IMG/VR virus record: IMGVR_UViG_3300025151_000024
Location: 1-64,000 of that record
Direction: 5' to 3' (one strand)
From: a virus
DNA: 64,000 bases
Part shown: positions 2 through 44,834 of the stretch, one piece after another
How the letters are laid out: every line of letters starts with the position of its first letter
Numbering within the stretch: the stretch's first letter is position 1
The notes under the pieces: model-generated
Told to the model about the DNA's origin: nothing
What the model saw: the letters and a program-made list of their open reading frames with translations, nothing else
The model's database searches: none
Translations under genes and position numbers: made by a program

Positions 2-682
2 CACAAGAATACTGTTTATGAAAGTGGTTTGAAGAAGGATTTTGATGGTGAAATCACCACAGGAAGATTCCCTGCGAATGTGATTATGGATAAGGAAGCG
101 GGCGAGATTCTTGACGAGCAAACAGGCGAATTGAGTGCCGGACACGCACCAAAGTTAAGCAAAGGCAACCCATTTTCAGGTGCTAATGATACTGAACGCC
201 AAGAAATACATTATGGAACAGGCGGTGCATCACGATTCTTCTATTGTGCCAAGCCATCACAGGCTGAGAGGCATGGTGGTTTAGAATCTTTAGAGGATAA
301 GGAAAAATATGCCGATTTTGGTTTGAGGAATAGAATACAAGATGGAGTTATTACTAATGATAGAACCAATAACGCTGCATACACATCAAAGAACAATCAT
401 CCAACGGTAAAGCCCATCAGTCTGATGACCTATTTGTGTCGTCTTGTGACTCCTAAGAATGGAACAGTACTTGACCCATTTATGGGAAGTGGCTCAACTG
501 GAATAGCGGCTTGTATGGAAAACTTCGATTTCATTGGGATAGACATGGAAGAAGAATATGTCGAAATCGCTCGTCATCGAATTACACATTGGAGTGATTA
601 CAAACTTGATGATTTAGAGGTCGGAGAAGAAACAGATTTCAAACCTGTTAGATTCAGAAATCAACCAGCAACGTATTGGTAA
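2..682 (+). CDS. DNA methyltransferase (N6-adenine or N4-cytosine type), 5' truncated by window edge
   Basis: This is the C-terminal part of an S-adenosylmethionine-dependent DNA methyltransferase. The frame is open to the left edge, so the true start lies outside the window; a TTG at 29 is not a convincing start. Near the end it has HPTVKP, then the SAM-binding motif DPFMGSGSTG (about nt 472-502), then a stretch GIDMEEEYVEIARHRI typical of the end of these enzymes. A SAM motif at the C-terminal side implies a beta-type order, with the catalytic (D/N/S)PPY motif upstream, not visible here. The target base and recognition site cannot be read. Its likely roles are protecting the viral genome from host restriction or marking it. 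The next gene starts 14 bases downstream with its own Shine-Dalgarno. Confidence 0.88.
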   Translation, partial: HKNTVYESGLKKDFDGEITTGRFPANVIMDKEAGEILDEQTGELSAGHAPKLSKGNPFSGANDTERQEIHYGTGGASRFFYCAKPSQAERHGGLESLEDKEKYADFGLRNRIQDGVITNDRTNNAAYTSKNNHPTVKPISLMTYLCRLVTPKNGTVLDPFMGSGSTGIAACMENFDFIGIDMEEEYVEIARHRITHWSDYKLDDLEVGEETDFKPVRFRNQPATYW

Positions 683-696
683 AAGGAGATAGAAAA

Positions 697-933
697 ATGG
701 AAAGAGAAATTAGGAACATTGTATGTCGTTTGGAACTTACAAGAAAGGACAAAGAATTGGCTTTGATTGAGGCATCATGTTATCGAACAATGGAGAACAA
801 ATATGCTTACGCATCGAAGATAACGAAGGCCGATGTTGAGGCTAACTGCATAACCGATGACGAAATCCAAGAGGGATTGGAAATGGTCGGTGAGTGGGGA
901 GTATGGGTTTCCGGTGTCGAGAGGGGTGAGTGA
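697..933 (+). CDS. Small hypothetical protein
   Basis: A 78-residue protein, rich in charged residues and probably helical. The ATG at 697 is chosen over an upstream TTG at 676 because it follows a good ribosome binding site (AAAAGGAG, about 681-688) and does not overlap the methyltransferase. The C-terminal half contains ITDDEIQEGLEMVGEWGVW, which looks like a short folded helix-turn region, but I do not recognise the family. It sits between the methyltransferase and a PC4-like protein in the same operon, three bases before the next start codon. No function is assigned. Confidence 0.6.
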   Translation: MEREIRNIVCRLELTRKDKELALIEASCYRTMENKYAYASKITKADVEANCITDDEIQEGLEMVGEWGVWVSGVERGE

Positions 934-936: not shown

Positions 937-1206
937 ATGGGAGAAGAAAACATTTGGCGAAGTCCTAGTATGGAAGGAAAGTGGATGAATGGTAAGGGAG
1001 ATGTGCTGGCTAGGCGCATTGACTACTATCAGAAGATTTGGTTAGACCTACGCATAATCAATGTGCAAGATGGAAAACACCAACCCACCCGACATGGAGT
1101 TAGATTAACAGTAGAACAATTGAAGGAGATTCTACCTAGACTCGTTGAGTTTGTAAACGAAGTCGAAGATGAGTTAGAACAAGAAGAGCGGAGTAGAGAG
1201 GAATGA
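937..1206 (+). CDS. PC4/Sub1-like single-stranded DNA-binding protein
   Basis: An 89-residue protein. Residues about 25-75 follow the pattern of the PC4 (transcriptional coactivator p15) domain: strand-forming IWLDLRIINVQDGK, then a basic turn QPTRHGVRLT, then an amphipathic helix VEQLKEILPRLVEFV. In PC4 proteins the equivalent 'DIREYW...GE.KPGRKGISL...QW' segment forms the dimeric ssDNA-binding groove. The C-terminus is acidic (EDELEQEERSREE). PC4 domains occur in phages and archaeal viruses as ssDNA-binding or transcription accessory proteins, and the replication neighbourhood fits. The ATG follows a TGAATA junction and the stop overlaps the next start. The call is by pattern only; a profile search would settle it. 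Confidence 0.55.
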   Translation: MGEENIWRSPSMEGKWMNGKGDVLARRIDYYQKIWLDLRIINVQDGKHQPTRHGVRLTVEQLKEILPRLVEFVNEVEDELEQEERSREE

Positions 1207-1640
1207 AAATTTGGCACATTGAATGTTCTGAGTGTGGTTTTAGGCAACGTGCTATTCAAGACCCAAAACCGAAAAGAAAATGCCCCAACAGACACACCAC
1301 TTGTACTAATTCACATTTAGATTTAGTTCATGAAATTGAGCATCTAAACCAATGGTACGACTTTAGTAGGGAAGAGAAAATTGATGACGGTTTCCATTTT
1401 GGGAAATATACTAATTACACAATTGTACCTGTTTGGGGTCATGTTGATGGTCATCTTGTAATGATTGGTAAAAGGAAGCGATACCATTTACAGGAATGCT
1501 GCGGTAAAAACCGATTCAATTCTCGTTGTCCAGTATGTAATTATAACTGGAAGTCTGAAAAGCAAATTCCTATAACTTTCCCTCCTACAAAAATAGATGA
1601 AGATGGTTATGAAGGATACACAATAAGCGGGGAAGAATAA
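1203..1640 (+). CDS. Cysteine-rich, probably zinc-binding hypothetical protein
   Basis: A 145-residue protein with a zinc-ribbon-like N-terminus (CSECGF, then CPNRHTTC) and a second cluster near residues 100-115 (CCGKN...CPVC). Two cysteine pairs with a CPxC-like second half suggest one or two structural zinc sites. The middle has aromatic and histidine-rich strands (HFGKYTNYTIVPVWGHVDGH). It overlaps the preceding gene by an ATGA junction and ends in a TAATG overlap with a 38-residue mini-protein, so it is translationally coupled in the replication operon. It is not recognised as a named family. Confidence 0.55.
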   Translation: MKIWHIECSECGFRQRAIQDPKPKRKCPNRHTTCTNSHLDLVHEIEHLNQWYDFSREEKIDDGFHFGKYTNYTIVPVWGHVDGHLVMIGKRKRYHLQECCGKNRFNSRCPVCNYNWKSEKQIPITFPPTKIDEDGYEGYTISGEE

Positions 1641-1756
1641 TGAAATTTATGGCAACAATCGGAAAAGAGAAAAGAGGAAAAACTGGATTTGTTTATGATA
1701 CTCTTAATAACGGAAAAGAGGAACTTTGGGTTTTAGATTTCGATGGTGAGGAATAA
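1640..1756 (+). CDS. 38-residue P-loop mini-protein, apparent partial duplicate of the RecA-fold ATPase gene
   Basis: A very short ORF coupled on both sides by one-base TAATG overlaps, which favours real translation. It carries a perfect Walker A (GKEKRGKT, residues 8-15) and ends in LWVLDFDGEE. The virus's full-length RecA-fold ATPase (6297-7298) has the same order: GHENTGKT, then NGKDQLWILDFDGGG. At the DNA level about 36 of 40 bases match between the segment starting AACGGAAAAGA here and in the ATPase gene, while the loop between the motifs is about 10 codons shorter. It cannot fold as a full ATPase. It may be a remnant of a duplication, a small regulator that mixes into the ATPase, or non-functional. 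Confidence 0.6.
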   Translation: MKFMATIGKEKRGKTGFVYDTLNNGKEELWVLDFDGEE

Positions 1757-3168
1757 TGAAATTCTCGTTAGCAGCGAGATTACATGAATCTCTCCTTCTT
1801 GGTAATGATAAGCGACAAGTACTATCATCAATTGATAATTACAAAGATGCACTAGAATTGTATCACTTGTTTTGCCCGCAAAGAAAAATTATTACCAAGG
1901 GCGATTTACATAATTTAGCAGCCGAAGAATTCGGTGTTTTCGTAGATGTTATCGCTGATGTGGTGGGTGAGCGTGAAACATGGCGAGTTTTAGCCCTAGA
2001 AAGCAACGTAAGCGGCTCTAGAGACTGGAAAGTATCTGAGGCTATCCAACACGCCGAGAGCCTCAAAGATGGCGCAATCGGCTTACTTGAAATTACGAGC
2101 CTTCTCGATGAAATCGAAGCCCGTTTGTTTTGGAGATTCATTATCGGTGAAAAAGTAATGAGAGAAACCGCTTTCTTGAATGCCGTAAGTCAGAATACTT
2201 CTATTCAAAGTCGAATTCTGAAACAACACATCGCTGTAAAAGACCCCGAAGAAATACTAGAGGCGTTATTCAATGACCCTGAATCGTTAGGTGCAGGTGT
2301 GTTATGGAGTGAAGAACCATCACTAGCATTAACACCACGCAGGTTTATTCCACATCTATCACAAAATGGCCCTACCAAAATTAAGAAATACAACGGTGGT
2401 TTTTATCAACGAATACTAGCCAAAGGTGCAACCAATATGTTGCATATCACAAATGAGCCTACTGGTTCTCGTTTCGTATGGCGGGATAGAACTGGTCGGT
2501 TAATACCGAAAGGTCTAGCGCCTAAGTTAGATTGGTCTATCAAAGGGCCAGTTATCTTAGAGGCGCTTGGTGAAAATAATACTATTCACGTTTATGATGC
2601 GATATACCCAAGATATCCTACATTAACATTACAAGAAAGGTTAGAGAAATTCCAATCTAGTCTTACAGATGAACCGATAGTGGTTCATTTCCCTACTGAA
2701 ATTGAACACTGGAGTGGTTTAGTTACAGTATTAGATGACGAGGAAATAATACGCTTCCCGAATTTTTCAGCATACGAACCATTTAGTGAAGGGGGGTACA
2801 CTTTGATGACATCTATGGCTCGCAAGATATTCAGATTACAACAGGTGAAACAAAACGAAGGTCGTTTATTTATTCGTGTAGCAGCACTTGATGGTCTAGA
2901 TGATTACGTCATCGTGGGTGAAATGGAAGCCTTCGATGATTTAACACCACAGTTGTTATTTTCTATCAAGAGAAGAACTGGTTTCATTCCAAAGGATACT
3001 TGGGAAAACGTGTCCGATACCGATTGTATAGCGGTAGAGGTGGTGACCCCACGAATAACTTATGAACCAATCAACATCGAAAGCCCTCTCCTTGTCGCTG
3101 TTCGTGACGACTTGGGGATATCTGATATCACACAAATAGTAGATTTAATGTTCGGAGATGATGAATAG
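1756..3168 (+). CDS. ATP-dependent DNA ligase-like nucleotidyltransferase
   Basis: A 470-residue protein with the layout of an archaeal/eukaryal-type DNA ligase. The N-terminal helical part includes LLDEIEARLFWRFIIGEKVM (about 116-135), like the DNA-binding domain. A nucleotidyltransferase core begins at about residue 205 with KKYNGGFYQRI, in the position of the adenylated-lysine motif KxDG. A motif-IIIa-like YDAIYPRYPTLTLQERLEKF (280-299) closely mimics ligase 'FDLLYL...LPLEERR'. A C-terminal beta-rich OB-like part follows (about 360-460). Odd points: KxNG replaces KxDG, and the later EG and KxK motifs are hard to place, so activity is uncertain. It would seal nicks during viral replication or repair. 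It lies two genes before RFC, and the next gene begins directly after its stop. Confidence 0.55.
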   Translation: MKFSLAARLHESLLLGNDKRQVLSSIDNYKDALELYHLFCPQRKIITKGDLHNLAAEEFGVFVDVIADVVGERETWRVLALESNVSGSRDWKVSEAIQHAESLKDGAIGLLEITSLLDEIEARLFWRFIIGEKVMRETAFLNAVSQNTSIQSRILKQHIAVKDPEEILEALFNDPESLGAGVLWSEEPSLALTPRRFIPHLSQNGPTKIKKYNGGFYQRILAKGATNMLHITNEPTGSRFVWRDRTGRLIPKGLAPKLDWSIKGPVILEALGENNTIHVYDAIYPRYPTLTLQERLEKFQSSLTDEPIVVHFPTEIEHWSGLVTVLDDEEIIRFPNFSAYEPFSEGGYTLMTSMARKIFRLQQVKQNEGRLFIRVAALDGLDDYVIVGEMEAFDDLTPQLLFSIKRRTGFIPKDTWENVSDTDCIAVEVVTPRITYEPINIESPLLVAVRDDLGISDITQIVDLMFGDDE

Positions 3169-3600
3169 ATGGATGATTGGTCATTTGCACTTGGGTTCAT
3201 CATTAGCGACTTGAAATTTCACGCTAGTATGACTAGGAGTACTCAAACCCCGACTGGTTTTAGGCTACGAAAATACATTTGGTGGAGAACTCTATTCGCA
3301 AAGCCTAGAGATGGATTATTAGAATTGGTTGAAGAGCAATTAGAGACAGTAGGTATTTCACTCAAGGAAGAATACCACAACAAAAAAGAAATTCAGATGT
3401 GGTTTTCTTTGATAGAAAAAGCCAATTTAGAAAATAAGTTATCCGACCAATTAGGAATTAAACAACTGAAATTTGTATTAGACAATCCCTTCCCAAAAAC
3501 ATTCGATAGTATAGTAGAATGGGCAAAAGAATTCGATAATATTGAGTTGGGGTATTTAAAGGAAACAATAAATGAGGTTGAAGCACATGGCATGGAATGA
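3169..3600 (+). CDS. Hypothetical protein between ligase-like gene and RFC
   Basis: A 143-residue protein starting immediately after the ligase-like stop codon and overlapping the RFC start by 14 bases. The N-terminal segment WSFALGFIISDLKFHAS has a faint resemblance to a LAGLIDADG helix followed by a beta strand, and it is followed by a basic stretch (RLRKYIWWRTLFAKPRD) and by LLELVEEQLETVGISL. The acidic catalytic residue pattern is not convincing. The rest is helical and charged. I do not assign a function; the strict coupling suggests a replication or repair accessory role. Confidence 0.5.
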   Translation: MDDWSFALGFIISDLKFHASMTRSTQTPTGFRLRKYIWWRTLFAKPRDGLLELVEEQLETVGISLKEEYHNKKEIQMWFSLIEKANLENKLSDQLGIKQLKFVLDNPFPKTFDSIVEWAKEFDNIELGYLKETINEVEAHGME

Positions 3601-6101: not shown

Positions 6102-6297
6102 AACTAAGGTAGAATTAGAAGCAGAAAACGCAGCATTGAAAGCACAGGTAGAAAGAGTGGAGATGTTAGAGAAGCAGGTTGCTAGGCAACAATTACAATT
6201 ACAGTTGCTGGAACAATACGCCAACACAGTAATGGGTGCTGGGCAACAATTGATTTCTAACATTGAGGCTTTGAATAAAGCAAGTGGTGATGAGTGA
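6094..6297 (+). CDS. Small coiled-coil protein
   Basis: A 67-residue protein whose residues about 4-45 form a heptad coiled coil with leucine-zipper spacing (VELEAENAALKAQVERVEML, then EKQVARQQLQLQLLEQ). There is no basic DNA-binding region, so it is more likely an oligomerisation or adaptor protein than a bZIP-like regulator. It is preceded by AGGAGATGAAGAAAA, giving a usable ribosome site, and ends in a TGATG overlap with the RecA-fold ATPase gene, which suggests coupled synthesis and perhaps a shared complex. Confidence 0.6.
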   Translation: MSKTKVELEAENAALKAQVERVEMLEKQVARQQLQLQLLEQYANTVMGAGQQLISNIEALNKASGDE

Positions 6298-7298
6298 TGG
6301 CGGGTTTTGGCGCAGCGAAGCGCATTCAAGAAGATAGAGAAGAGAGCGGCGAGCCTCTACCTACTGCTGAGAATAAAACCACACCTGTTGTAAATAGCAA
6401 TGACCCATTCTCAGATTTGAGAAGCGAGTTACAATCACTTCACAAGAATCAACCGAAAACTACGGTTTTTGCTTTGATTGCTGGACATGAAAACACAGGA
6501 AAAACTGCGATTGTTTTAGATGCATTCGATAGGCATTGTAAAAATGATAGCAACGGAAAAGACCAACTTTGGATTCTAGATTTCGATGGTGGTGGGGTGG
6601 GTACTACAACCGCATTCCATTCAAACAACGATAGAATTAGATGTTGGAATCCTTGGGTAATGCAAACTGGAAACAGAACTGCATATGATTATCCGGGCAC
6701 TCACGACCGTGTTATGAATATCATGCAATTCGCTGTGGATACAGCCCGAAAGCAGAACGATGATGGTTATGATGGTGAAAGAATTTGGGGTCTTCTAGTA
6801 ACAGGGATAGACCTTTGGGATTCGATTGCGATTAACTGTATGAGAATCGAAGACCTAAATTTGGCTCGTGACGGTATCGAAGCGGCTGACTGGAACGTTA
6901 AGGTAGGCCATCAGTGGGATTGGGCGATACGCAAGACTAGATTCCATCAATTGACCGCTCTATCAAAGCAGTTAGTGTCAGCAGGTTGTCAGGTGTATTG
7001 GGAAACCCACTTACGAATGACAAACTATTCTTTCGGTAAAAACGAAGATGGTGCTAAGTGGCGACCTGATTGTGAGAAATCAACCAACAATTACGTGTAT
7101 CAAATTTTGATGTGCGAAAGAGTTGATACCTATGACGATGAACGGCGTGAAATTATCAAGAGCGAGTATACAGTCACCTTTGATAAGAGTAAAACTAATG
7201 CAGAACTACAGGGACAAAGAAGAACAATACTTGTTACAGAAACAGGAAAGCCAGCCCGATGGGTCGGTCTTCCTGAACTAAGTGATGGGAGTTTGTGA
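6297..7298 (+). CDS. RecA/RadA-fold P-loop ATPase
   Basis: A 333-residue ATPase. Walker A is GHENTGKT (residues 63-70), the next strand is LWILDFDGGG (91-100), and a Walker-B-like strand ends in LLVTGIDLWDS at about residue 170. The fold order matches RecA-superfamily ATPases, as in the phage Sak4-type or RadA-like proteins used in recombination and replication. There is no N-terminal HhH domain as in host RadA, and no obvious L2 loop motif. The ATG at 6297 (TGATG overlap) is preferred to GTG at 6294. It sits between two small helical proteins and the sliding clamp. A 38-codon ORF at 1640 copies its P-loop region. Confidence 0.75.
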   Translation: MAGFGAAKRIQEDREESGEPLPTAENKTTPVVNSNDPFSDLRSELQSLHKNQPKTTVFALIAGHENTGKTAIVLDAFDRHCKNDSNGKDQLWILDFDGGGVGTTTAFHSNNDRIRCWNPWVMQTGNRTAYDYPGTHDRVMNIMQFAVDTARKQNDDGYDGERIWGLLVTGIDLWDSIAINCMRIEDLNLARDGIEAADWNVKVGHQWDWAIRKTRFHQLTALSKQLVSAGCQVYWETHLRMTNYSFGKNEDGAKWRPDCEKSTNNYVYQILMCERVDTYDDERREIIKSEYTVTFDKSKTNAELQGQRRTILVTETGKPARWVGLPELSDGSL

Positions 7299-7301: not shown

Positions 7302-8054
7302 ATGACAGAAGTAGAGTTAGATAGAAAAGATTTCCTTCAATTCCTTTCTTCTTTTGGGGAAACTGAGGATTTGAAAATTGTAGCATCTAAGGATTCTATT
7401 TCAGCAGAAGTAGGGTTTTCCACACACTATTTGAAAAAATCAATGGCTGTTGAGGCTAACTCAATAAAAACTGAAGGTGAAATAGATATTTCAGATTTGA
7501 AAAAGTTGGTTTCTTTTTGCAAAAAGATAAGCAAAGATAGTATCTTGGTAAGGCAAATGGGGTCAGGTAAGACTTTGTATGTTAATGGTGGTAGCACAAA
7601 GTTACAACTTCCAACAAGTAATACTATTATTTCACATACAAAAACGCCGTTGATAAATAAATTAATTTCTGAGGCGAAAGATACTATGTGGTCTACTTGG
7701 ACTCCGCAGAAACTTGAGATATCCACACATGGTGATATATCTGCATCTGAGTTACTCGATATTGCTAAGATGAAAGATATTGTCGGGAAACACGGAATTA
7801 CAGTATCAGTAAATGCTGATGAGAGTGAATTTGCTGTTGCTATGGGTAAGAAACATACCCCTCGTATTTTCTCCACGTTAAGCGTATCGAATTCTCAAGG
7901 ACCAATGGGTACTGTAGAGAGTGATTTCGGGCATTGGTTTACTGATTGTCTTGGTATGCTTGAAGAAAGCGCTGCTACTTTTCACATGGGTGAATCATTA
8001 CCTTTGATTATTGAACAAGAAAATACACTATTGATAATAATCCAAGAAGCGTGA
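7302..8054 (+). CDS. PCNA-like sliding clamp
   Basis: A 250-residue protein of clamp size. Two-fold repeated beta-rich halves are visible: a first half with IVASKDSISAEVGF and GEIDISDLKKLVSF, and a second with ISASELLDIAKMK, ITVSVNADESEFAVAM and a C-terminal SLPLIIEQENTLLIIIQ, which matches the usual PCNA ending (PL.I.Y...G...YLLAP). Sequence conservation is weak, as is common for viral clamps. The placement directly before PolB and downstream of RFC strongly supports the role. It would tether the viral DNA polymerase. It begins three bases after the ATPase gene and ends four bases before polymerase. Confidence 0.75.
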   Translation: MTEVELDRKDFLQFLSSFGETEDLKIVASKDSISAEVGFSTHYLKKSMAVEANSIKTEGEIDISDLKKLVSFCKKISKDSILVRQMGSGKTLYVNGGSTKLQLPTSNTIISHTKTPLINKLISEAKDTMWSTWTPQKLEISTHGDISASELLDIAKMKDIVGKHGITVSVNADESEFAVAMGKKHTPRIFSTLSVSNSQGPMGTVESDFGHWFTDCLGMLEESAATFHMGESLPLIIEQENTLLIIIQEA

Positions 8055-26961: not shown

Positions 26962-28384
26962 CTAAATCCTCCGTGAAACTAATTACTTTTTTCTTTGCTG
27001 TACCTAGAGATTCTTTTCCTATACCGGGTAGGCTTCGCCCAGCATTCTTTCCGATGATATACCCGCTATTAGATACATCTCTTGTTTTTACTACTGTAAA
27101 GAATGAAATGTCTAGTTCATCGAATAAACTCAAATCTTCTTTTTGAATTTGTATTGTCGTATCCTTATTGGATAAATTACCTTCAGCAACAAATCCTTCA
27201 CTTACACCCTGAATAGCACCTTCAAGCCCAACATCTAAAGCGAGGAATTTGAAATTTGAAAGATTAGAATTGAAAGAATGTTCCGCTTCCATAATTGCAT
27301 ATTTTTTCCCTTTGTAAGTTACTAAATTACCCGGCCTTAAATCCCAACTGTTTGGATGCCCATCTGTTTCAATTGCACCTTTCATTAGAGCGGTGGCTTT
27401 CAAAATTTGACGAGCGACTCTTCTAGCGGCTCTTTCAGTTTTTATCGAAGAATCGAAAACAGGTGTATTAGTTGATTGAATAAAAGAGTCAAATTTACCC
27501 TGTTGTCTTGAACCATCATCAACTGTAACTTCGACATTACTGTTTAACGCTAAAGGAATACCCGCTACTGTAACTCGATTTACTACGCTATCAACTGGAT
27601 TTGTTCTTTCAGTACCTTGTCTTAAACTAGATTTTACCATTCTAGAAGCGTCTGAAAAATTGAAAGGTACATAGATAATATTACCAAACCTGTCAAAATA
27701 CACCACTCTATTATCATGTCTTGAGACAAATTTCAAAGCAGAAAGTATTGGGATGTTCTTTACATCTTCAGCCAAGAAACTAGTACTATGTTTTCTTCTC
27801 GTTGAGGTAGCATTAGTAATAGTTCTAGGCATTGCTATGTTTACAGATGTTACATCACTTGTAATTTCTTTAGTTAATTGTAAGGCGTAATCGGTGGTTC
27901 TTAGCCCAATATCTACTGGTTGTCCCAAATATACTTCATTTCCTGTAAAACCGATATCCTGTAATGTTTTACCCTGCATATTAGAGAGATTCGCTTTAAT
28001 GCCTCTAGTATGAGTTTCAAAACTATTCAATTGTAGTCTTTCTTTTTGCTTTTCTTTTCCGTAAATTAATATCCTTTTATCTGAAGATGAAGATAGTTTT
28101 GAATTTTCATACCAAGGGGCATTTTCGTATCTATGTCCTGCTCTTTCAGAATGAGTTATTTCTAGTGTAGAATTATTTTCTACAATTTCATACGAAGAAT
28201 TTGAAGCGGTGTGATATGTAGCATTCTTTCTATTTTCAATCGTAACTTTTTGTTTGTTAGAAGTTTGGGGATTGATTAAACTGTAGTGAACTGCGTTATC
28301 AACAAAAACAGGTTTCCTTGTCTCAGTCATTATAGCGTCAGGACTCACATTGAAGTGACCAGCCGAATCTTCAACTAGTGTCAT
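26948..28384 (-). CDS. Baseplate hub-like tail protein
   Basis: A 478-residue protein. A hub-type (gpD/gp27-like) design is suggested by a region ILSALKFVSRHDNRVVYFDR followed by FGNIIYVPF, a DSVVNRVTVAG strand region, and a C-terminal segment WDLRPGNLVTYKGKKYAIME, typical of the 'PG..v.l.g.....y.V..v.H' element in late-control D proteins. It begins in an ATGA overlap with the giant tail gene. It would sit at the tail tip between the tube and fibres. Assigned by pattern and position only. Confidence 0.5.
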   Translation of the reverse strand: MTLVEDSAGHFNVSPDAIMTETRKPVFVDNAVHYSLINPQTSNKQKVTIENRKNATYHTASNSSYEIVENNSTLEITHSERAGHRYENAPWYENSKLSSSSDKRILIYGKEKQKERLQLNSFETHTRGIKANLSNMQGKTLQDIGFTGNEVYLGQPVDIGLRTTDYALQLTKEITSDVTSVNIAMPRTITNATSTRRKHSTSFLAEDVKNIPILSALKFVSRHDNRVVYFDRFGNIIYVPFNFSDASRMVKSSLRQGTERTNPVDSVVNRVTVAGIPLALNSNVEVTVDDGSRQQGKFDSFIQSTNTPVFDSSIKTERAARRVARQILKATALMKGAIETDGHPNSWDLRPGNLVTYKGKKYAIMEAEHSFNSNLSNFKFLALDVGLEGAIQGVSEGFVAEGNLSNKDTTIQIQKEDLSLFDELDISFFTVVKTRDVSNSGYIIGKNAGRSLPGIGKESLGTAKKKVISFTEDLDVGF

Positions 28385-31300
28385 GCGGCATCACCTGTAT
28401 GGTCCGAAGTTCCAAAGTCCACATCTGCCTTGTGACCTTTTGGATGTAAAGATTGGCTAAATCTCGGTTTTATATTGTAGTCTATTAATTCAGAATTCTT
28501 TCTTCTCGGTGCATCGCTTCTGTGGTGGAGAAGTGTATTTTCAGTAATTACTAATCTACAAACAGTATTGAACAATGTATCCTTATTGAAATTTGTAACT
28601 TCTGTACCTAGTAAATTAGCACCCATAGAAGACGGCACAGCATCATTGCCAGTGGACATATAGATGATAGGCATATACGGTCCATTTGCATTTGGAATAG
28701 CACGTGTATCAGGTAAGTTGGTAGTCGCAGTTCTTCCGCTTGGGGTGTTGTAAACAAACAGTCCGTATTTTCCACCGGCGCTACCTTGGAAGTAATCCCC
28801 GTCACTTTGTTTCAATGCTGAGAATTTACTTCTAAATATTTCAACGTGGTTTTTATCTAAGACTCTAACTGGTCTTACTAAGAATTGAATTGTTTTATCA
28901 GTATCATTATTTCTTCTAGTATCTGCGGTGTAAGTTGTAGTATCTTGGTATGGATTTGTTGTTTTATTTGAACCAGTTAAGGATGTTACACCCCAACCAG
29001 TATCATCGAAAAGACCAGCAAAATTTCTTGCTTCCAAAATATAGTCGCCGCCTAAAGGTCTCATGTTAGATGTGTGACTAAATTTCAAGACACCAGCGTT
29101 TGCACCATTTGTGTTATTGAAAGAGAAGTTTGTATAATCGGCGTAACCAAGTGACTGAGAGCCTATGGAGTAAGCACCATGCAGTACGGTTCTCTGACCA
29201 ACATTTCTATCAGTATGCAAACTGTGGGCTTCTGTATTAATCACAATATGGGATTTTTCTGTTCCTTCGATAGTTTCTGCATCAATACCAATTCTTGGGC
29301 TAGAGCGAGAAACTGCATCTTTGTGGGGGCTAGAACCTGAAATTTCTTCTACTCTATCACTTACAACAGCCTCCGGCTTCAACAAACCATCCTCTGCAAT
29401 TTCTAGTCTAGCGCTAATCCCACGAGGGATTTCATCGGCTTGCAGTACATCGTTACGGGGGCGTAACAGACCTTCTCCAAAGGTTGGCTCGGCAGTGTTA
29501 TGACTGAGAACCATACCTGTTGTATGGATAGGTGCTGAAATTTCAGTTAGCAAATCTTCATTGAATGCTGTTGGGTATCTAACACCCCTTCCGCCACCCA
29601 TATCACCAATTCTTAATGCGTGTGTGGGAGCAAAGACATCTACTAAGATTGTAGATAAATTTGTATTATCGTCGTTTAATCTTCCACCAAATCTAGGGAT
29701 TGTAAAGTTTGTAGTCACGCTTACTTCGCCGTTTGAATTAACAACATTCTTCAAATTGAAAATTGGTTTTCCATTATTCCAAACCCTCTGATATGGTGTT
29801 CTGCCGTTTGTTCTATCATATTCGTAAGCATCCCCACAGTCCCATGCTGGTCTAATACCGAATCCACGCACTGGAGCACGTCTTACAGCCTCTCCACGAG
29901 TATTACCCCACCAATCCACCATATAGTACTGAGAGGCCTCTACGAGCCTTGTAATGCCCTTCCCTTCTTCATCTCCCCACCAGTCTCTTTCTACCTTGTT
30001 GTTATTTCTTAGAGTTCTAACTGGAGAACCAAAAGGTCTAGTCATCCTTCGACCATCACTTCTTCTAACTTGAACTTCGTATTTGTCTGTACCCAACTGA
30101 CCAGCGAAATTAGTCAATCTTTCCATTATTCCAACATAAGTTGTAGGATATGTTTTCGACCCACCACCGTCTGCTTCGTTCCAAGTTCTTGTTTCGATTT
30201 GTACAAGTGGACCTGCCTTAAACCCAACACTAGTAGCAGAAACGCCGGAAATAGCATCTTCAAGAGCAGCACGAGTTGGGATTAGCCCCCATCTAGGTTT
30301 GTTAATCGCTTGACGCAAACTTATACGATAACCAAACGGTAATCTGTAAGATTGGCCTGTTGTGATTTTTGCTTTTGTTATTCCATTAGTTCTTGAGTAA
30401 GCAGCACCTATTGTGGTGTTATCATACCAGCGATACAAATCATCTGAACCGTAAGCCCTCGGAACTATCCAACTAGCAGCAGCCTGTACGAATACATCGG
30501 GTCTGCTACTATGAGGGCCACCACGACTACCACAAGGCCAAAACCGATTCAACATGATGTAATTTGATGCTTGGTCTTGTCCTGCTTGTGAATGTGTGCT
30601 ATTTGCAACTGTAACACTTCCATCTTTAGTTGAATTAGGAGTCTTTATTTTCAAATCAAATGGCCCAAGACTCATTCCATAAATTGCATCTTGATATCTA
30701 AACGTTTCAAAATGTTCGGGCATTGAATTGTAAGATTGCTTATCTATTGCCCTATCATTTGTATCACCATTCCATGTTCTTGTAGAATCAGAATAGAATG
30801 TATATGGTCGGCCTAAGTTATGATGCCACATACATAAATATGCATCAGGTATATGTAAATTAGATGTATCTTTTGTACCTGTTTTTAATCTATCTAAATT
30901 AGTTGCAAATATACTCTTATCTATTTTTGTAAATATATCAACTGAAGGCATTGTATCATATGCTCTAGTTAATCTAATTACAGTTTCACCATCTACAATA
31001 TTAGATACAAACCCTGTTGCAGATACCCCAGTAAATTGATTTGCTACATTGACAGTTCCATTTTGAAGACCACTTCTTCTCGTATAATCTGAAGTTCTGC
31101 GTTTTCCATTAGAATCTACATATTCTAATTTCTGTCCATAATATGGTGTCTCAGGGAATATACTAGCATCATCAACAGTTACAGTTGTACCTGTACTACT
31201 TACAACAGTTGCTTTTGGATTTAGAGATGTATTTTGTAATATATGCGAATATATGTCAGGATATACAGATGGATATCCTGCAATTGTTAATTGCATTCCT

Positions 31301-34300
31301 ATATTACCAAAAGTACTTCTCGATACTTCATAGTAATTATCTAATTTAATTTGAGATAAATGTCTAAATCCATTTGCACTTGAATCATCAGGTGCTACTT
31401 TATGTAAAATACTCCACCAAGGTATATTCAAAGTAATACTTGGTGTGGCGTTTGAGAACATTTTACTATACGGGAATGCTCTTCTTGTAAACGAAGGGCT
31501 TTCACTCATTTCAACTCCGAATGGATTGAATAAAGACAATGGTGGTATTTTGTTAAATTGTGAACCAAAGTCAGGCTCTTGGTCAAGAATAATCTCATTG
31601 ATGAATACTTCACAACCTCTAACATCTGCTTGTGTCGCTTCATCTAAGTATAGAACTAAAGCACCAACAGCGGCAACATACTCAGTTCCAATAACTGTGT
31701 GTACTTGTTGACTTGTTAATTTCTGTACACTATTGTAATAGTGATACCCTATGATTTGACTATCGAATAAATTCGGCTGTATTACAATTTGATAAGCCCC
31801 GACTTCACGAGGGTCAGGGAAATGATGTTGAAGTGAATACTTCTTAGCAGCCTCCAAAACAACGGTATGTCCACCTGCTTTGTTAATTACACCTGCATTT
31901 CCTCTAGAGCCTAAAACACCGTAACCATCCCATTTTACGCTAGTTTCAAACATTAAGGTGAAAGCACCGCCGTGTATATCGCTAGGTGTGCTAGGTGTAG
32001 CGGTCATTCCACTAAAGAAAATTTCAGGTTCTAAAGGATTCATTTTGTCCGTAACATTTGAAGAAATATCTGAAGAAACAGAAAGAGGAGTTTTTTCTTC
32101 GTTGAATAATTCTCTGTCTCTAAACCCTTTGACTGAAGAATTTTCAGCAAGATGCTTCCTATACACACTTTGGTAGGCAGGGTGAGCCCAATGCCCCGGT
32201 AACATTGGCATAGTGGCTGAAACAAAATGATGACCCATTCTAGGATAAGGCATTGGTGTAAGAACTGGCTTTGTGTAAATTGTGTGGGCTTCTGTATCTG
32301 AATTCACACCTGTGAAATATTGAGTATGAGCCATATCAGGCGAAGCACCACTTACTTCTGCATGGTCTCTCATACGCTGTGCAGCATAGAATCTAGCACT
32401 TCCCGCTGGCATATAGTAAGATGGCACTATCTTCAAATCAGTAATAGTTTGAGCAGCAATAAAGTCTGTAAAGTCCACATCGCCAACAACACCCGTAAAG
32501 GTAGTTCCTGAAATTCCAGTATATGATGCAACCACCGATTCTTCAGTTGTAGGATTGTAAATGCGAATGAATCTTCTATCGTCACTTACTTCTTTAGTAC
32601 CAAAGTCAGCATCGTAAATTCTTGTATTTATTGTAGCATTCACCGTAAGTACTGAAGTTGAAGAATTCCAAGAAGAACCTGTAAGAACTTGATTTTCAAC
32701 ACCATTTGAATGGGTGTAAGTGGTTGGGTATCTGTGGGTATGGCTGTGACCCATTTTTGTTACATGGAAGAAAAGAGTTCTATCATGTAATTCGTATGTG
32801 GTTTTTAATGGTGCATTTTCTGTAGCATCCACCCAGCCAGTTTTGATACTATCATTTGAAACTGGGTCAATATGTTCCCAATTCAAATTTTCATAAGTTG
32901 GTCCTAGTCGTAATTCTCCACCATTATCATTTGAATCGAAAAGATGCTTTAATTCGGTTTCATCGAGGTTTGCTTGTAATACCCCTCCACTACCGAAAGT
33001 TTCGTTTTGATGTGCCATAATAGGGTCAAACCCTGAACGAACTAGGATATTACCCGGAATAGTTTCAGGGTCAGGTAAAGAGACCATTAGTGCTGGCTTA
33101 TTGCCGCTGTTTGCAAGAGAAGGAGAACTGCCTTTTACACCTCTATCGTCTAATACTCTAAAAGTTCTAATTACAGTTCCTAATGGGCTTCCACCTTCTA
33201 CAATATGAGTTTCTCCTGAATCATCAACTACAGAAATTTCTTCAAATTGAATTTCTTCATTTGGTATCACCAAAACATTACCAGTAATTTCTCTATGCTT
33301 ATCTGCAAGTTGTGGTTGCTGTAATTCTTGAGTTTGAATTAGAGGGAACATGGCGCTATTTGTAGTCTCAAAACTAAATCGTACATTGCCGTATATTTTC
33401 TCCCCATGTGTGTAGGCTGTATCAGATTCAACTCTTGTAGTCCAAGGTACAGCGCCTAAACCTCTAGCATTCAAAGCAGGAAGAGATAAATTACCACCAT
33501 CCATTCTTTTCCAAACAATATGCTCAGTTGAAAAGTTTAGGGCAGAGGTACGTTTGTACAAATCAAAAGCGTGAACATCTCCTTTCCAAAAATCATCAGG
33601 ATAATCTGAATCTGAAGTATATGCAGTACCAGTATAAAATTCAGGAACTACATTTCTTTCAGTGGTGATACCTGATTCTAAATTTTTAGAGCCAAGAGAG
33701 AAGTCTAAATCTGTAATTAAATCACCAGTTTTCGCCCTATCAGGATTTGCATTTTCTAATCTTAAATCTGTAACACTTCCAGTGTGGAAGGTGTAAGCGC
33801 CCAAATCTGTGGCGTAACTAGGCAAAGCGGTGTTATCCACAATTAACGCTTCAACATTAGGACCAGCATGGGCTGGTGCAATGAAACGGTCTTGAGAATG
33901 GAATCTTTCATCCCATTTTGTTGTCCCAGCATATTGTAATTTATTATTTGCAACACCTTTAGAAATTAAGAAATCCCCAACAGCAATAGAACCATCTCTA
34001 TCTTTTTTCGCTATCAAAGCAAATTCAGATTCAGATGCTACTACTAAAAATGCGTGTCCAAATAACCCTTGTGGGTGTGCTAAGTCTGCCGGTAGTGTTG
34101 ATGTGATATCATAATGTACAGGTTTAGAGTGAAGGGTATCCGGTGCATTATCATCTGTATCTTTTCTAGCGTATGTTAAATTATTAGTGGTATAAGTTAC
34201 ACCTGTGCTGCTATCGTAAGGGTCGTTAATGTAAGTCATCAAACTAGAACCAATACCGTCTACTGGTGGTAAACTTTCAGGAGACCTCGCTAATGGCGCT

Positions 34301-37300
34301 ACAATAGGCATATGGCTCAGGGTTTCAAGCATACCGGAACTTATACCATAGGGTGAAAATGCTAGTTCTGAATGCCAAGCACCTAAACCAGCAGAATACC
34401 CTTCTGTACCTATTTTTAGGCTGTTTAGATAGGAGTATCTCTCGCCATGCCAACCCACTGCACCAATTGGTCTAGTGCGGTCTATTGCGTCTACAAGACC
34501 CGAAAAGTGAGTTTGACACATATGGTCTCTAGATGATGCATTTTCGTTATTGAATCTGTGAACACCCGCTTTAGACCACACATACAAATTGGTATCTGTA
34601 CCTCCAATTGTAGGGTTAGCAGATGGATTTGCTAATGTAACGTAACTTTCAAATTCAGCGTTATTTGAAACTCTATTAGGTGCAAGATAGAATCTAACTT
34701 TCCAAGTACCACTATCCTCAAACACTTCTCTAGAATGATAAGAAGCCCAAGCAGGGACAGTTGTACTTGAACTTCTATCGGCTTTTAGCCACCCACAAGC
34801 GGGTATCTGTTCTAGTGCAGTTTTTGTTGTAATAGTTGAACTTGAGAAATCTAAATAATTAGGCGCAGAAGAATTATTGTATGACTCAAAAGTGTCTAAC
34901 TCGACCCAACCATATCTATCTTGACGCATAGCGTTACCCATAGAAGGCATATGAGTGCCGCCAATGGCTTTCAAAGCACCAGCGCCGGGGAAAGAATTGA
35001 TTGCTGCTCCTAAAACAGTGGCTAATTCATTACCATTTTGACACCTAGTAGCATCCACAATAATATACTCCATATCAACATCTGAAGAAACTAAAGCACC
35101 TTCTGATGCTGCGTAATCTAGAACTTTAGTGGTAATAGGTCCAGCCACTCTATACGCTGTTGGGTGTAATTGTGATGAAGCACCCCAAGTTGTTAGAATA
35201 GTATCAGATTTAGGATGTGGTGGGTTGAATGTAATTTGGTTATCCATCCAATTACCGCCCGGATGATAACCACCATCCATATGGAAAACCATATCTGCGC
35301 CAGTAGCGATTCCAAATCCTAAAAGTGAATTATGTCGTAAAGGCATAGAACGTTTAGTATCATCATTGTTCGCAGTAGAACCGCCATCTACGAACATTTG
35401 ACCATACATTCTGCCGCTTTCAGGTCTTTGATTTAAAACGCCAACTATTGTTTTTCCTGCTGCCGTTTCCCAGTTTAATTGAGTTCTCCAGTGGAAGCGA
35501 TTCCTTGCAGTATGGTAAGTTGAAGATAGAGGCATATAATCGCCTTCATCGTTTTCAATATGGTTAGGCAGGAAAGTACCTTCGGGAACAGAAGTCCAAC
35601 CGTTTCCAGCAGTAACTACTCTACCCGGATGTGGTTGTGCTGTATTGTAATTGATAGAACTAGAGTCTGCTATTTCTTGTGTGAAAGGAAATGATTGCCC
35701 CGGTCCAAATATAATGTAAGTAGTTTTATTTTCAGTTCCATTAACATGGTCTTCGTATCTAGCAGTAGGGTGTGCAAATCTCAGAACTAGTGGGCTTGGT
35801 TTCTGCACAACAGTGTTATTTGTTGAATACGGAACAGAATTAGGATGGTCGCTGTTAATAGTCCCTGCGCCTGAATCTAAATCAGGAGATAATATGTTAT
35901 CTCTATTATGTGCTGGTGGAACTAAAGAACCTCTATGTTGATTCAAAAGTGGAGTACCGGGGAAGAAAGCCATCATAGCGTTAGCATCTAAAATCGCGTG
36001 GCTTGTAACAATCTCATTTGCGTTTTGAATACCAGCAACCCCTGTAGGACCACTTGCGTATGGATGGGTATAGAAGTCTGAATAATCATTCATAGTGCCG
36101 TCATTTACATCTAAAACGACACCACTAAACCCACCACCAAAGAAGACTGGTACACTATGGTCAGCACTACTTCTACCTCCTGAGAATTTTACAATAAGAG
36201 GTGAATCTACACTACCTATGGAGCGAATACCATCTATTTGTTGTGTAGTATCTAAATCACCCTTTACAGAAATAACACCTTCTGAAGAATTATCAATATC
36301 TCCTTCTCTAAATGCTTGTGTAAGTTCTATACTCTGTGTACCTGCAATCGGTATTAAAGTAGTTAAAACTGTTCGATATGAGTTAATATTAGCACCTTGA
36401 TGACCTTCTACTGTAACTCTAGCGCCCGGCCAAAAAGATACTGTTTTAACTTCTGATACTGATTTTACAGTCCCTGTATCTTTACAGGCTGGTGCTAAGA
36501 ATCCCCAAATAGAATTATTTAAACCTGAAGTTGCCATATAAATATGGGTTAAAGTGTTAGAAGAAGAATTTAACCCTTGATAGAATAATGAAGGGTTATC
36601 AATTGCGGGTAAGATGTGGTCTCCTGAAGTTTTCGTAAAATTATCTCCATTGAGATTTTTACGCCATGTATCAATAAAAGTATTATTTACTGGTTCATTT
36701 AATGAATCTATTAAGGTAGGAGAATTTGAATTTGAATTTGGCCCAAATGATTTACTCTTTATCTGTAACAAAGTCATAGGGATGTACCCACAATCAACCC
36801 TTCTTCCAGCATCTAAATTAGCATCAGTAACTGCTCTACTTGTACCAAAAGCCCATTCTGCGCTATTTTCTAAGGATTTTTCTATTTCTCCATATTCTAA
36901 ATGTGCAGCCCTAATACCGTAATCTTGGTGTACTTCTGCTGTGAAATATTCACTGATTGGTATAATTTTTCTATTAGGATTAAACGCTCTTATCCTTATA
37001 CTATCGGCCTTAACTCCCCATTCTCCAAAAGTACGACCATCTGCTGCAAGCATTTCTCTACAATCAAAAGATACTCCGCTTTCTTCATTTACATCTACAG
37101 CGTTTATTGCAGCGGCGGTTACAGCACAAAGGAGTTCATCTGTAACTAGAGTAGTCCAATTTAATGATGGAGAAATTAGATAATTAGAAAATGAGGTATC
37201 TGATGATAATTCAGAAGTTATGCCGTAAAACTCATGAGGGCCATTAAAGTCATTTTGTGTTCTATTTTCATAGTATAGAGTAAGACCAGTATTCCCACTA

Positions 37301-40300
37301 CCTGAAGTATTTGTTAACTGTATTCTACCATTAGTTTTTGGGAATCCTAGATAACCTAACAAATCTGTATGTGTTAAATCTTGAGTAGGTGTTGAATCAT
37401 ATGGGTCAGAAAGAACAGCAACTAATTTTTTGGGAGCATGGATATATTCTGAATTAGTTGTCATATGCAATGCTATATTTTTAGCAGGTACAGGATTCCA
37501 AAGACCGCCGTAATATTCTTTTTTAGTATCACTAGAAAAACCAGTTAATCGCCCAGTTGCATCCCCTGTCCCTACCATATGATGACCTAGAGTGAAACCA
37601 CCCTGCCCTACACCTCTATCATCGAAAAAGACACAAACTTCCTCATCAATGGATTCGGGTAGTTTTGTATTATCATTTTCAAACGGTGTACCCATTTGTG
37701 AATAAATAAATCTAATTCTAGATTTTTGGCCTTTGTGATTTTCTAATTCTATTCCGTAAAGTTGTTTATCACCAATTTTTTCGTTGCTAATTTCTGAGGC
37801 AGGTACATAACTTCCATAACTAGTTAATGAAGAATTACCGTATCTTCTAGCAATTGAATTATCACCAGTTCTACCCATTCCCCAATTTCCTGCTAATGGC
37901 TTCCAACCCGGTACTCCCGCTTGTGTTAAACCACCAAAATTAACTCTAGCAAAAGCGTGAGTTCCTGTTCTCAAACCTTCTGTGAAAGTTTGCTCTTTGG
38001 AACTTTCAAAAGATTCTGCATTTACAGAATTGAAGCCTGAGCCACCAGTCGCATTCGATATTGCTCTCAAAACTGGGCTACTGGTATTATCATCTCTAGG
38101 TGCAAAATCAGAATTTACAGATGTTTGGATATCGTTTTCTTCATTAGTTAATTGATGAAGAGTTGTAATTGGGGCAAAAGGTCTTCCATTTTTATCTAAA
38201 GGCATAGGTGCAGGGTGCATATTTTCTCCATCTATTTCATCAGGCTGTCCCCAAAATGAACGCCATCTACCACCATGACCTACAATAAATTCAGGTCTGT
38301 ATGGTGATTGCCCTTTGCTGTTATCTAACCAAACACAAAAATTCCTTCCGCTAGCACCGGGAACTGTGCTGTGTATTACAATCGTAAAACCCTTATTTCC
38401 GTCTGTATCTTGAACTTCTCTTCCAATATGTGCCCTAATGTAACCCATATGTGTGCCTCTATCTTTAGAGGCGAAAGCCCTGTTTTCATCCCACCAAGGC
38501 GCAGGGTCGTGAGCACTACCACCTTCTTGGAAACTAGACTTAGGAGCAGCGGCTTGGTTGATTTTTCTAATTACCTCATTAGCGGCACTTTGAATATTTG
38601 TTACACCCTCTGATTCTCCAACCTCACCCAAATCAATGGTTAATCTTCTTACAAAGTCCATTTGAGTCCAATGTGGTAAATGCTCAAGTCTACTTTCATC
38701 ATGATTAGATAAATCCAAAGTGGTATTTCTTACACCCTTTAGAGAAAGGAAGGCCGGAATTACTCTAGTTCCATCAGGTGTGTCAAAAAAGGTACTAGGT
38801 TCTCTTAATGAGGCATTTGAAGTGCCTACTCTTAATTTCTTTAAAGCAACAACAAAAGAAGATTCAAAACTTCTAATTCTTGAAAATTCATGTTTTACAG
38901 TAGCGAAAACCGATAGTAATGTTTCATCAGATGTTCTACGCTGAATGCTATCCCCAACTGCGTAGTTTTTGTCTCCACCTGAAATTGAATATCCTAGATG
39001 CACATGGTGACCATGAGCCTTTCCGTAAATTGAAGGAGAAGTAGCACCTGCACTAGATGTTGCTAAATTTGCTGGTAATGAGCCGCTTAACGGCGTTAAA
39101 ACATCAGTTCCTATTCTATTCGCAATGTCATGTGCATAAGCAGATTCAATGAATTTAGATTGTTGAGTTGCTCTCAAATATGGATTTTGTGAAGGGAAGC
39201 CGTTCGCTACATCTAATTGAGTTGTAGTCCAAGAAGGACCACCACCAGTAAGAGTTGCTGTGTATTCTGCTAAATCAATCAGAGAACCGTCTTTAACAAA
39301 TTTACGAGGCCATCCAATTTCTGCTGTTGCTGCTGAAGACTGAACTTGCATATGTATATCTTGGAAAGCGATAAACTCTCTATCATGACCTACATCATAA
39401 AGTAAAACTCTAGCATGACCTTCAGCAGCAAGATATGGGTCAAGATAGGCTATTGTTGGTGCTTCGGCAGCAGTAAGACCGAGAGCCTTGTAATTTTCTT
39501 CAATGGTCTTATTGACGTGTTGAACATAATTTCTTGCGGTTTCTAAACAATTTTCCCCAATCAAGAAATTTTCTAACGGTACACTATCTCTTGGCTCATC
39601 CGAAAGTGTGCCTGTGCCCCCAGTAAATCCTTTCCAAACCCGATTTTCGTTTAAAACACCTCTAGATTTAGAAAATAATCCCTCCATCGCATGAGGATTA
39701 TTCAAAGTCATGTTACACCAAATAGTGTCCCCATTCCTTAAACCACCAGCAGCGTAAGGATAAACCCAAGAGCGATTTAAAATTGCATCAGGGTCCTCAA
39801 CAAAGGCATTACTGAATGAAACATATAATTGACAACCAGTGGCAGTAGCGCCAGCATTTGCAGTTAATGTTACAGTGTAATCATTAGAACCTGAAAAATC
39901 TCTAGCACTAATTTCTGAAATTGTTCCAATAGGAGTTAGAGCAGTATAACCTTGAGTACCACCTGTAGCAAAAACATGGTCTCCTACACGTAAGTTCGCC
40001 CCTAGTGTGTTAGAGGTTAGAGGTGTTGTTTCAGTCGAAGTGATAGTCACTGACGTGCTGCCAGCAGTAGAATTGATTCCCCAATCAGTCGCAATTGCAC
40101 AATATGTTTCGTATTCTTCATCAAGAATTGAATCTGCTGCAATTGCACTGATATTAGTTCTGTTGAAATTAATAATCGCTCTACTTCTTCTACTTAGTGT
40201 GATTTGTTTCCCAGCAGCCAGCCATGACGGAACAGTAGTTCCGGTAGCATTGTAAAACCCTAAAGCGATTGTGTTTTCTGCAACATTCTGACTGTCTGCT

Positions 40301-43300
40301 GTTCTTATTCGACCGTAATAATGCAATCTACGGGTAGTACCATCATCATCTAGTTCTATTTCGTAAAGGAAATCTCCAACTGAAAAATTAACTGAAGTGA
40401 GATAATCAAAACCAAAATCAGGGAATAATTCTAACTCTTCGGGTAATAAACTAACTAGAGCAATACCCATTCCATCACTACCGTCATTATCTTCTACTAC
40501 TCCTACAATACTTTGGATTTCACCAGTGGCTCTTTTTGGCTTAATACGGTCAGCGTGAGGGTTACTTTCAGGCCCAGCCTTGAATTCTACAGCGCTAACA
40601 TATTGTCTAAGGCCGTAATCTACATTCCCACCTTGTGTTTGAGCACTAGCAGCGTCATAGTAAAAATTACTTCTATTTTCATATCCTACGCTCTTTGTGA
40701 AAGGTTCATGTCCAATTGGTGCTAATGTTTCTTTAGGGATAGAGCCGCTCATAAAAACGGGTAATCCTATATCATATTCCTCTCTAAAAGCGTCAGTAGC
40801 CCCCCATTTATAGTCAGGAATTCTAAGATATCCATCTGTTGCTGGGTCATTGTCATACAAAGCCCAAGCGCCACTTCTTAGGAAGATTCTTCTAAATCTA
40901 GGAACGTTATCAATAGATTGGTACATATCAGTATAGGCTGTACCCGCAGCAGCGGTATTTGCCGCAGGGAATTGCGTATGGTTAGTGACGTATAATTTTA
41001 GATAATTAGACAAAGAAGTATCAAACCTTTGAGTGATAATCGCATCATTTACAGATTCATCTTTAGAAATTGAATACGAATATGCTTCGTGTTTAGCCCT
41101 GTCAGAATTAAATCCAGCGCCCGGTCTTTTTCCAACTGGAGAAGGATTCCAAGAATGTGCAGTGTAAGTGGCATCAATGTGGAATTTCAAAGAATTATCA
41201 GGACCGGGATGTGTATGTGTTAGAATGTTATCAAAAATTTGTTGTTCAAAAATAGGTATTTCCACCATAGCCCTTGTACTAGCATACTGCGTTCCTAATT
41301 GATAATCATGATTCACACTACTTCCTGACTGAAACATTCTGTCGTTTACAGTCGTTCCATCTGCACTGAAAGAATCTGTACCAAAATGTGGGTCTGCACA
41401 AAGAACGAAAGAAACACTAGTTGCCGTTGAACTAAGCGTTACATTGGATGTTTTCCCAATACCTTTTAGCCAATTTTCAAAAGAAGAATAGACTTTTCCT
41501 ACTGCATCTGTGTATTTTTGCACATTCACACTAGACTCAAGTGTATGCGTGAAAGTTCTAGTTGCGGTGCTGCTTCCTGTAGCGGCATTATTCATAGTCA
41601 AAGTTGTAGCAGAATCAATAGACTCAATGATTGTATTTGCTGGTATTTGAGAGCCGCTAACACTCATACCTACTACTAAATTAGTAGTATCAACACTAGT
41701 TAGAGATGTAGATGTATTAGTTGCTGACGATAAACTGTAAGAATCTGTGAAAGTAAAACTAGTGCCGTTTTTAGAATCGTATAGGGCGTTACTTCCATCC
41801 TCAAGATACACTCTTCCAATTTTTGCAAACCCATAAGTTCCCCAACTAGCCATATCTGTTGAGTTATTATTGATTGGAACTACATTCAAAGTTCCTACAC
41901 TACTAGCATAAGAAACAGATTTGGTATTTACATGGAATGACCTTTGTGTAGAAAACGGATGCCTAGATAGAATACTAGGGTCATAGGTTGGGCGTATATC
42001 GCTACCACCTTGTCCAAGCCCACCAAGAGTTACTGTAACCACTGGTGCATTCGGCTCAATTTCCTTTACCACATGAGAATCAGGGCTTCCCTTACCTGTT
42101 TTTGAAACATTTTGGTTTACAATGTTTTGATTTGAACCGTAACAGGTGATTACTGTCTTCTTCACCCCATCGTCTTCTTTCTCATCAACAGAACTAATGC
42201 GAGCCTTAGACATCAAGAAATACAAAGAAACATTATTTGTTTCGTCAATATCTTCTGCTAAACTTCTCAAACGATACAATTGATTAATTCTTTCTCGATT
42301 TGATGGTTGAATGTAAAATCGTAAATTTGCAGAGGCATTCCCCTCTATCGCTACATTATCTATAACGTCAAACATTTCATGGATTTGGGTATGGCTAGAT
42401 GTTGTTCCTAAATCGAATTCACCATTAGAAGGAGAACTAATTACAGTAGAAGGCTCTCTTCTTGAATAAGTTGTTTTATCATTTAGATTTCTATTCTTAG
42501 GAGATACTCTTTCTAAGAGAATACGATGGAATACGCTGTCATGGTCAGTAGTTGTAGTGTGACTTGCGGTAACTATCTGTGGGGGCGTATTAGGTTGAGC
42601 GGTAGCAACGGAAACTGGAGTATAGTTTGCAGGGGTAAAGGATTCATCTAATTCATCATCGGCTTCATAACCCTCACTTGTATCACCCACTAAATTATGC
42701 GATTTTCCTACAATTGATACCCCATCTGATGTTGGGTTGGCTGCGACATCAATGTACCCACCCGGTGAATAAAGTGTACAATTTGCTATATCTCCATTAA
42801 TAATATCAAAAACAGTACTTCCCCCACCCACAGAAGTTATTCCGGCAGGAATTGTCTTTTCAACCATCAAATACGCATTTTCAGATTCATCCCCCATACT
42901 ATCTCCATTCAAGTCAATAGCGTTATAGTAAACTAAAACGGTAGATGTAAAGCCTGTATAACTAGATAGTGCTGGGCAATTTAGTACTGCTATTCTAGAT
43001 TCTTTACTTGGTCTAATATGGTAATCTCGTGTTTCGGTGTTTATCGCTCCAGCATAGGGAACTGGCCCTTTCAAAACAAAAGGTCTGTAATCAAAATCTG
43101 CTCCACCAATACCAATAAGTTCTCTACTACCTGTTGGTAATCCATTACTTACAATAGCAGCAATGGAAGAAGAATTATTGAAATCTGTAATTCTGTAAGA
43201 ACTAATATTACGATAGACATCAATTCTAGAATTAGGTAAAATTTGATTTTCAATGCCGGGTTGTGTAGTATCATAATTAATCTCTACAATATCAGGGCTA

Positions 43301-44832: not shown

Positions 44833-44834
44833 AT

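What the first reader, a model, noticed from the sequence alone, without database searches (positions are those of the whole stretch)
1640..1756. 38-residue P-loop mini-ORF copied from the RecA-fold ATPase gene
It has a perfect Walker A and the following LDFDG strand, and about 36 of 40 bases match the ATPase gene 4.6 kb downstream, while being tightly coupled by TAATG on both sides. A short P-loop decoy or a seed for recombination between gene blocks is possible.
Basis: seen in the sequence. Interest (0 to 1): 0.6.

Follow-up and report, generated by a model that had tools for sequence, protein, structure and literature searches.

The report
Stray ATPase-gene fragment in variable slot
A tiny reading frame in a marine archaeal virus is a real partial copy of the virus's own RecA-like ATPase gene, but it occurs in only one virus species or its nearest kin, has changed its amino acids as freely as unconstrained DNA would, and is most likely a recombination leftover rather than a working decoy protein.

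Summary
ORF 1640-1756 (38 codons, GKEKRGKT) matches the ATPase gene at 36 of 40 bases in one block and 29 of 39 in the Walker A block. The blocks are separated by a 21-nt in-frame deletion. It is the only dispersed repeat in the window, and the own-lineage ATPase is the best donor.

Among about 50 related virus contigs it occurs in two only, both of the same or a near species. In one (99.85% identical) it is unchanged. In the other (about 95-98%) it is fused in frame to the first 47 residues of the upstream zinc-finger ORF, giving an 86-residue protein. All other relatives lack it. There the same slot, just before a conserved 470-aa gene, holds a TFIIB-like ORF, other small ORFs, or nothing.

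The copy shows 9 amino-acid changes in 26 codons against 9.25 expected without constraint. Keeping an open frame and the Walker A by chance has P about 0.12. The Walker-A helix is cut short, and a low-confidence fold shows three strands, no P-loop.

Best reading: an ectopic fragment in a hypervariable slot, kept open mainly because translation runs through it into the overlapping downstream gene. A decoy is not supported; a recombination seed has no evidence.

The parts
1640..1756 (+). 38-codon ORF derived from the ATPase gene (P-loop fragment); start overlaps the stop of the upstream ORF and its stop overlaps the start of the downstream gene (TAATG at both ends)
1661..1699 (+). block 1, Walker A codons GKEKRGKTGFVYD; 29/39 nt to ATPase 6483-6521 (GHENTGKTAIVLD)
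1709..1748 (+). block 2, NGKEELWVLDFDG; 36/40 nt to ATPase 6552-6591
6294..7298 (+). source gene: RecA-fold ATPase (334 aa), conserved in all relatives that cover the locus
1635..1647 (+). left copy of the 13-nt direct repeat GAATAATGAAATT flanking the mini-ORF
1751..1763 (+). right copy of GAATAATGAAATT, at the start of the 470-aa gene
1203..1343 (+). first 47 codons of the upstream zinc-finger-like ORF; in relative L002 this part is fused in frame to the P-loop fragment
1344..1640 (+). remaining 98 codons of the upstream 145-aa ORF and its stop (second CxxC-type module), absent in L002
1756..3168 (+). conserved 470-aa gene of unknown function; right border of the variable slot
937..1206 (+). 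conserved 89-aa ORF; left border of the variable slot

Best explanation
The mini-ORF is an ectopic partial copy of the virus's own ATPase gene: about 110 bases covering strand 1, P-loop, helix 1 and strand 2, with 21 bases lost from the helix. It sits in a hypervariable slot between two conserved genes (89 aa and 470 aa). The copy was made by illegitimate recombination or template switching in the ancestor of one virus species, after that lineage split from its nearest other sequenced relatives. Its left side has since been reshuffled: one lineage reads it as the tail of a zinc-finger protein, the other as a separate ORF behind a duplicated GAATAATGAAATT start junction. It most likely has no P-loop or decoy function. 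Its frame stays open because it lies in a translated, tightly coupled operon in which ribosomes pass through the slot and stop at the start of the 470-aa gene. Shown: homology, donor, distribution, fusion, overlap. Inferred: the copying mechanism, the translational-bridge role, absence of P-loop function.
For: Homology and donor. Present in only two other contigs of the same or a near species, found by DNA-pattern scans, protein scans and a search of 15 whole virus records. L002 carries an in-frame 86-aa fusion and lacks the 98-codon module. Slot contents vary: a TFIIB-like ORF in L005, L009 and L013, nothing in L007/L008, with no match to the L009 TFIIB-like protein in the window's own record. 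A 13-nt direct repeat flanks the mini-ORF, rare at that distance outside tandem arrays. Neutral-level change: 9 amino-acid changes in 26 codons, expected 9.25 (sd 1.5); P(open and Walker A kept) 0.12. In 27 of 29 rows checked the 470-aa gene starts inside or at the stop of the preceding ORF, whatever that ORF is. RNA fold ordinary (z 0.94); no Rfam family.
Against: The Walker A residues G, G, K and T are all retained, with identical codons. The frame is open in both configurations, and the copy has at most one internal change between window and L002. None of these is statistically strong. Only three contigs carry it, so selection since the split cannot be measured. The order of events at the left border (insertion of the 98-codon module or its deletion) is not resolved.
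Confidence: 0.62

Rival explanations
1. A new small protein that is functional but not as a P-loop: the copied piece has been turned into a short three-stranded segment that serves alone or as the tail of the zinc-finger protein.
For: Open in both configurations; in L002 fused in frame to a zinc-finger N-terminus; AlphaFold2 of the 38 residues gives three strands.
Against: The model is single-sequence with modest confidence (pLDDT 73, pTM 0.33). Amino-acid change is at the neutral level. Found in one species or its nearest kin only.
Confidence: 0.18
2. A P-loop microprotein that acts as decoy, dominant-negative subunit or phosphate/DNA binder towards the full ATPase.
For: Perfect Walker A and following strand; synthetic P-loop polypeptides of about 50 residues have weak phosphoryl-transfer activity (PMC10119929).
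Against: Helix 1 of the ATPase (residues 66-83 in the model) is cut by 7 residues, and family-invariant residues next to the motif are lost. The fold model shows no helix. Disembodied Walker A peptides behaved like composition controls in simulations (PMC11959459). No sign of selection.
Confidence: 0.07
3. Remnant of a complete second ATPase gene that once lay in the slot and decayed.
For: A full paralogue would also give a fragment with drifted codons; block 1 is more diverged than block 2 (10/39 against 4/40, p 0.08).
Against: No flanking ATPase sequence survives on either side, and no relative has a second ATPase copy: in each record searched the remaining hit is the ATPase itself.
Confidence: 0.1
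4. A seed for homologous recombination between gene blocks.
For: 40 bases at 90% identity in the same orientation 4.8 kb apart.
Against: Gene order between the two sites is the same in all relatives that cover it; the identity is short and interrupted.
Confidence: 0.03

Closest known systems
Partial (ectopic) gene duplications and fragment ORFs in variable slots of tailed-virus genomes
   Same: Short in-frame piece of a resident gene, single-lineage distribution, fused to a neighbour in one relative, no conserved family.
   Different: The piece happens to span a Walker A motif and is a free-standing coupled ORF in the window.
RecA-fold ATPases of archaeal tailed viruses (the window's own ATPase; Foldseek matches RecA, UvsX, KaiC)
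   Same: Source of the sequence; shares G-x4-GKT and L-D-F-D-G.
   Different: The fragment is 38 residues, has a truncated helix 1, and lacks everything after strand 2, including any Walker B.
Synthetic P-loop prototypes (Vyas et al. 2023, PMC10119929)
   Same: Short polypeptide with one Walker A.
   Different: Prototypes are about 50 residues with an ancestrally inferred P-loop; here the fold model is all-strand and no function is shown.

Membership tests
RecA-fold / P-loop NTPase | Walker A GxxxxGK[ST] | tested here: met
   GKEKRGKT
RecA-fold / P-loop NTPase | Strand - P-loop - full helix - strand unit | tested here: inconclusive
   7 residues deleted from helix 1 relative to the ATPase model; fold model of the mini-ORF is three strands, low confidence
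RecA-fold / P-loop NTPase | Walker B and the rest of the core | tested here: not met
   ORF ends after LDFDGEE
RecA-fold / P-loop NTPase | Family-specific conserved residues of the source ATPase around the P-loop (GH[ED]N-GK-AIV-DA) | tested here: not met
   H, N and A replaced
Functional microprotein (conserved small gene) | Presence across related genomes | tested here: not met
   only the window and two contigs of the same or a near species
Functional microprotein (conserved small gene) | Purifying selection on the amino-acid sequence | tested here: inconclusive
   change relative to the ATPase is at the neutral expectation, but with low power (26 codons); too few differences within the species
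Partial gene duplication | Significant nucleotide identity to a resident gene, best donor within the same genome lineage | tested here: met
Magrovirus-like archaeal tailed virus (host genome) | Replication genes RFC, PolB and thermosome with a tailed-virus structural module | tested here: inconclusive
   PolB, clamp loader and Cpn60/thermosome found; structural module and other hallmark genes not checked by family search; compared with PMC10768690

The most novel reading that the evidence does not exclude
A naturally encoded minimal P-loop polypeptide, split off from a modern RecA-fold ATPase and either free or attached to a zinc finger, that still binds phosphate or ssDNA or interferes with the full ATPase.
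Probability: 0.05. Interest if true: 0.7.

Novelty: new member of a known kind. Interest (0 to 1): 0.24.

Why it matters
As it stands it is a clean small example of how virus genomes recycle pieces of resident genes in a variable slot and how such pieces become the tail of a neighbouring protein or a new coupled ORF. It also warns that a perfect Walker A in a short ORF need not mean nucleotide binding. If the peptide did bind phosphate or the ATPase, it would be a rare natural counterpart of the synthetic P-loop prototypes.

Tried and rejected
The first pattern scan listed L001 only although L002 also holds the matching 30 bases, so single pattern scans of the collection are not exhaustive. 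No relative by DNA in the phage collection and none of the ATPase by protein. No genome-contig relative of the 470-aa gene. dN/dS within the species is impossible: 1-2 differences between window and L002. RNA element rejected: fold z 0.94, no Rfam hit. Thought at first that other 30-45-base repeats in relatives were further gene-fragment copies; they are a promoter-like element before transcription units. Considered that the Walker A half might be chance; rejected. Assembly artefact rejected because the right junction is the same in three contigs. The paper on magroviruses by Philosof et al. was not held.

Full report
Observation. The 38-codon ORF at 1640-1756 is there exactly as described. 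A self-comparison of the 64-kb window gives one dispersed repeat: 1709-1748 against 6552-6591, 36 of 40 bases, E 8.7e-8. Extending upstream, the Walker A codons 1661-1699 match 6483-6521 at 29 of 39 bases. No other 39-mer of the window reaches more than 26 at the allowed offsets, and 20,000 shuffles reach at most 27. The offset implies that 21 bases (7 codons) were lost between the two blocks. The mini-ORF from codon 8 to 36 is therefore a shortened copy of the strand 1 / P-loop / helix 1 / strand 2 part of the ATPase gene. Of the ATPases compared, the window's own lineage is closest (36/42 in block 2 for the window, L001 and L002; at most 29 for the rest), so the copy was made within this lineage.

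Source gene and genome. The ATPase has no Pfam family and only weak PHROG hits, among them Sak4-like. A model built from 24 orthologues has moderate confidence overall and a better core (block means of pLDDT 71-91 over residues 71-180), and Foldseek puts it with RecA, UvsX and KaiC (E 6e-6 and weaker), so 'RecA-fold ATPase' is reasonable. The neighbours are a clamp loader and a family B polymerase, with a thermosome further on. The layout resembles the magroviruses described for marine Poseidoniales archaea (PMC10768690). I did not test the taxonomy formally.

Distribution. Scans with the ATPase found 38 loci from related viruses; a scan with the 89-aa ORF added about 15 more contigs. Scans with the 470-aa neighbour, the upstream 145-aa ORF and degenerate DNA patterns for both halves of the mini-ORF found only two contigs with the fragment. 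A search of 15 whole virus records gave the fragment in the same two, and otherwise only the ATPase itself. One contig (L001) is 99.85% identical to the window over 13 kb. The other (L002) is about 95-98% identical.

What L002 shows. In L002 the fragment is not a separate ORF. The first 47 codons of the upstream zinc-finger-like ORF run through about seven new codons straight into the P-loop fragment, giving an 86-residue ORF that ends at the same TAATG before the 470-aa gene. The remaining 98 codons of the window's 145-aa ORF are missing there. That 98-codon module weakly resembles small stand-alone ORFs near this place in more distant relatives (E about 0.003-0.009), so it may be a module that comes and goes. 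I could not decide whether the window gained it or L002 lost it. The window has a second copy of the 13-base junction GAATAATGAAATT in front of the mini-ORF (1635) as well as at the 470-aa gene (1751). Such close exact repeats are rare in the window outside tandem arrays, which suggests that the TAATG at the left border is a duplicated junction.

The slot. Between the conserved 89-aa and 470-aa genes, relatives carry different things: a TFIIB-like ORF directly before the 470-aa gene (L005, L009, L013; weak TFIIB repeat hit for the L009 protein, E 0.0019), extra small ORFs, or nothing (L007, L008). A protein search with the L009 TFIIB-like ORF found no match in the window's record, though that search had no positive control. 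In 27 of 29 rows checked the 470-aa gene starts inside or at the stop of the preceding ORF. So an open frame ending at this start codon is a property of the place, whatever sequence fills it.

Selection. Relative to the ATPase, the 26 aligned codons hold 14 base differences and 9 amino-acid changes. Random substitution of the same number gives 9.25 (sd 1.5) changes among frames that stay open. The chance that the frame stays open is 0.57, and that it also keeps GxxxxGK[ST] is 0.12. The retained Walker A is therefore weak evidence. The residues that the ATPase family conserves around the motif are lost. Within the species there are too few differences to test anything.

Structure. AlphaFold2 on the 38 residues alone gives three strands at modest confidence (pLDDT 73, pTM 0.33). 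In the ATPase model the helix after the P-loop spans residues 66-83; the copy has lost seven residues there. A working strand-loop-helix unit is unlikely, though the models do not exclude it. Published work cuts both ways: synthetic P-loop polypeptides of about 50 residues have weak phosphoryl-transfer activity (PMC10119929), whereas simulated disembodied Walker A peptides behaved like controls (PMC11959459).

Conclusion. The finding is real but most likely an evolutionary leftover: an ectopic ATPase-gene fragment in a hypervariable slot, read as a coupled mini-ORF in one lineage and as the tail of a zinc-finger protein in another. The decoy and recombination-seed ideas are not supported. The bridge role in translating the downstream gene is my inference from the overlap pattern and has not been tested.

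Noticed in passing
window 3546-3571; L001 1309-1340 and 1990-2025; copies before the clamp-loader gene in most relatives: A dispersed 25-45-base element (GTTGGGGTATTTAAAGGAAACAATAA in this species; TATATAAAG/ATTTAAAGG variants in relatives) sits just upstream of the clamp-loader gene and of other genes: probably the virus's TATA-type promoter, conserved across the group although its letters differ by lineage.
   Followed up: partly
slot before the 470-aa gene, e.g. L009 5063-5440, L013 5695-6033: Many relatives carry a 110-125-aa ORF, TFIIB-like by a weak single-repeat hit, overlapping the start of the 470-aa gene; no match to the L009 protein was found in the records of the window, L001, L002, L007 and L008.
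   Followed up: partly
window 29-712 compared with L002 3076-3802: The methyltransferase gene upstream is mosaic: 59% protein identity in the matched segment of L002 but 91% DNA identity over its 3' part, and the 85-aa ORF at 676-933 is missing in L002; a second recombination site near the slot.
   Followed up: no
window 7302-8054: 250-aa protein in the position of a sliding clamp (between ATPase and PolB) with no significant Pfam or PHROG family.
   Followed up: no
window 28381-44847 (minus strand): A single 5488-codon ORF in the structural half of the genome.
   Followed up: no
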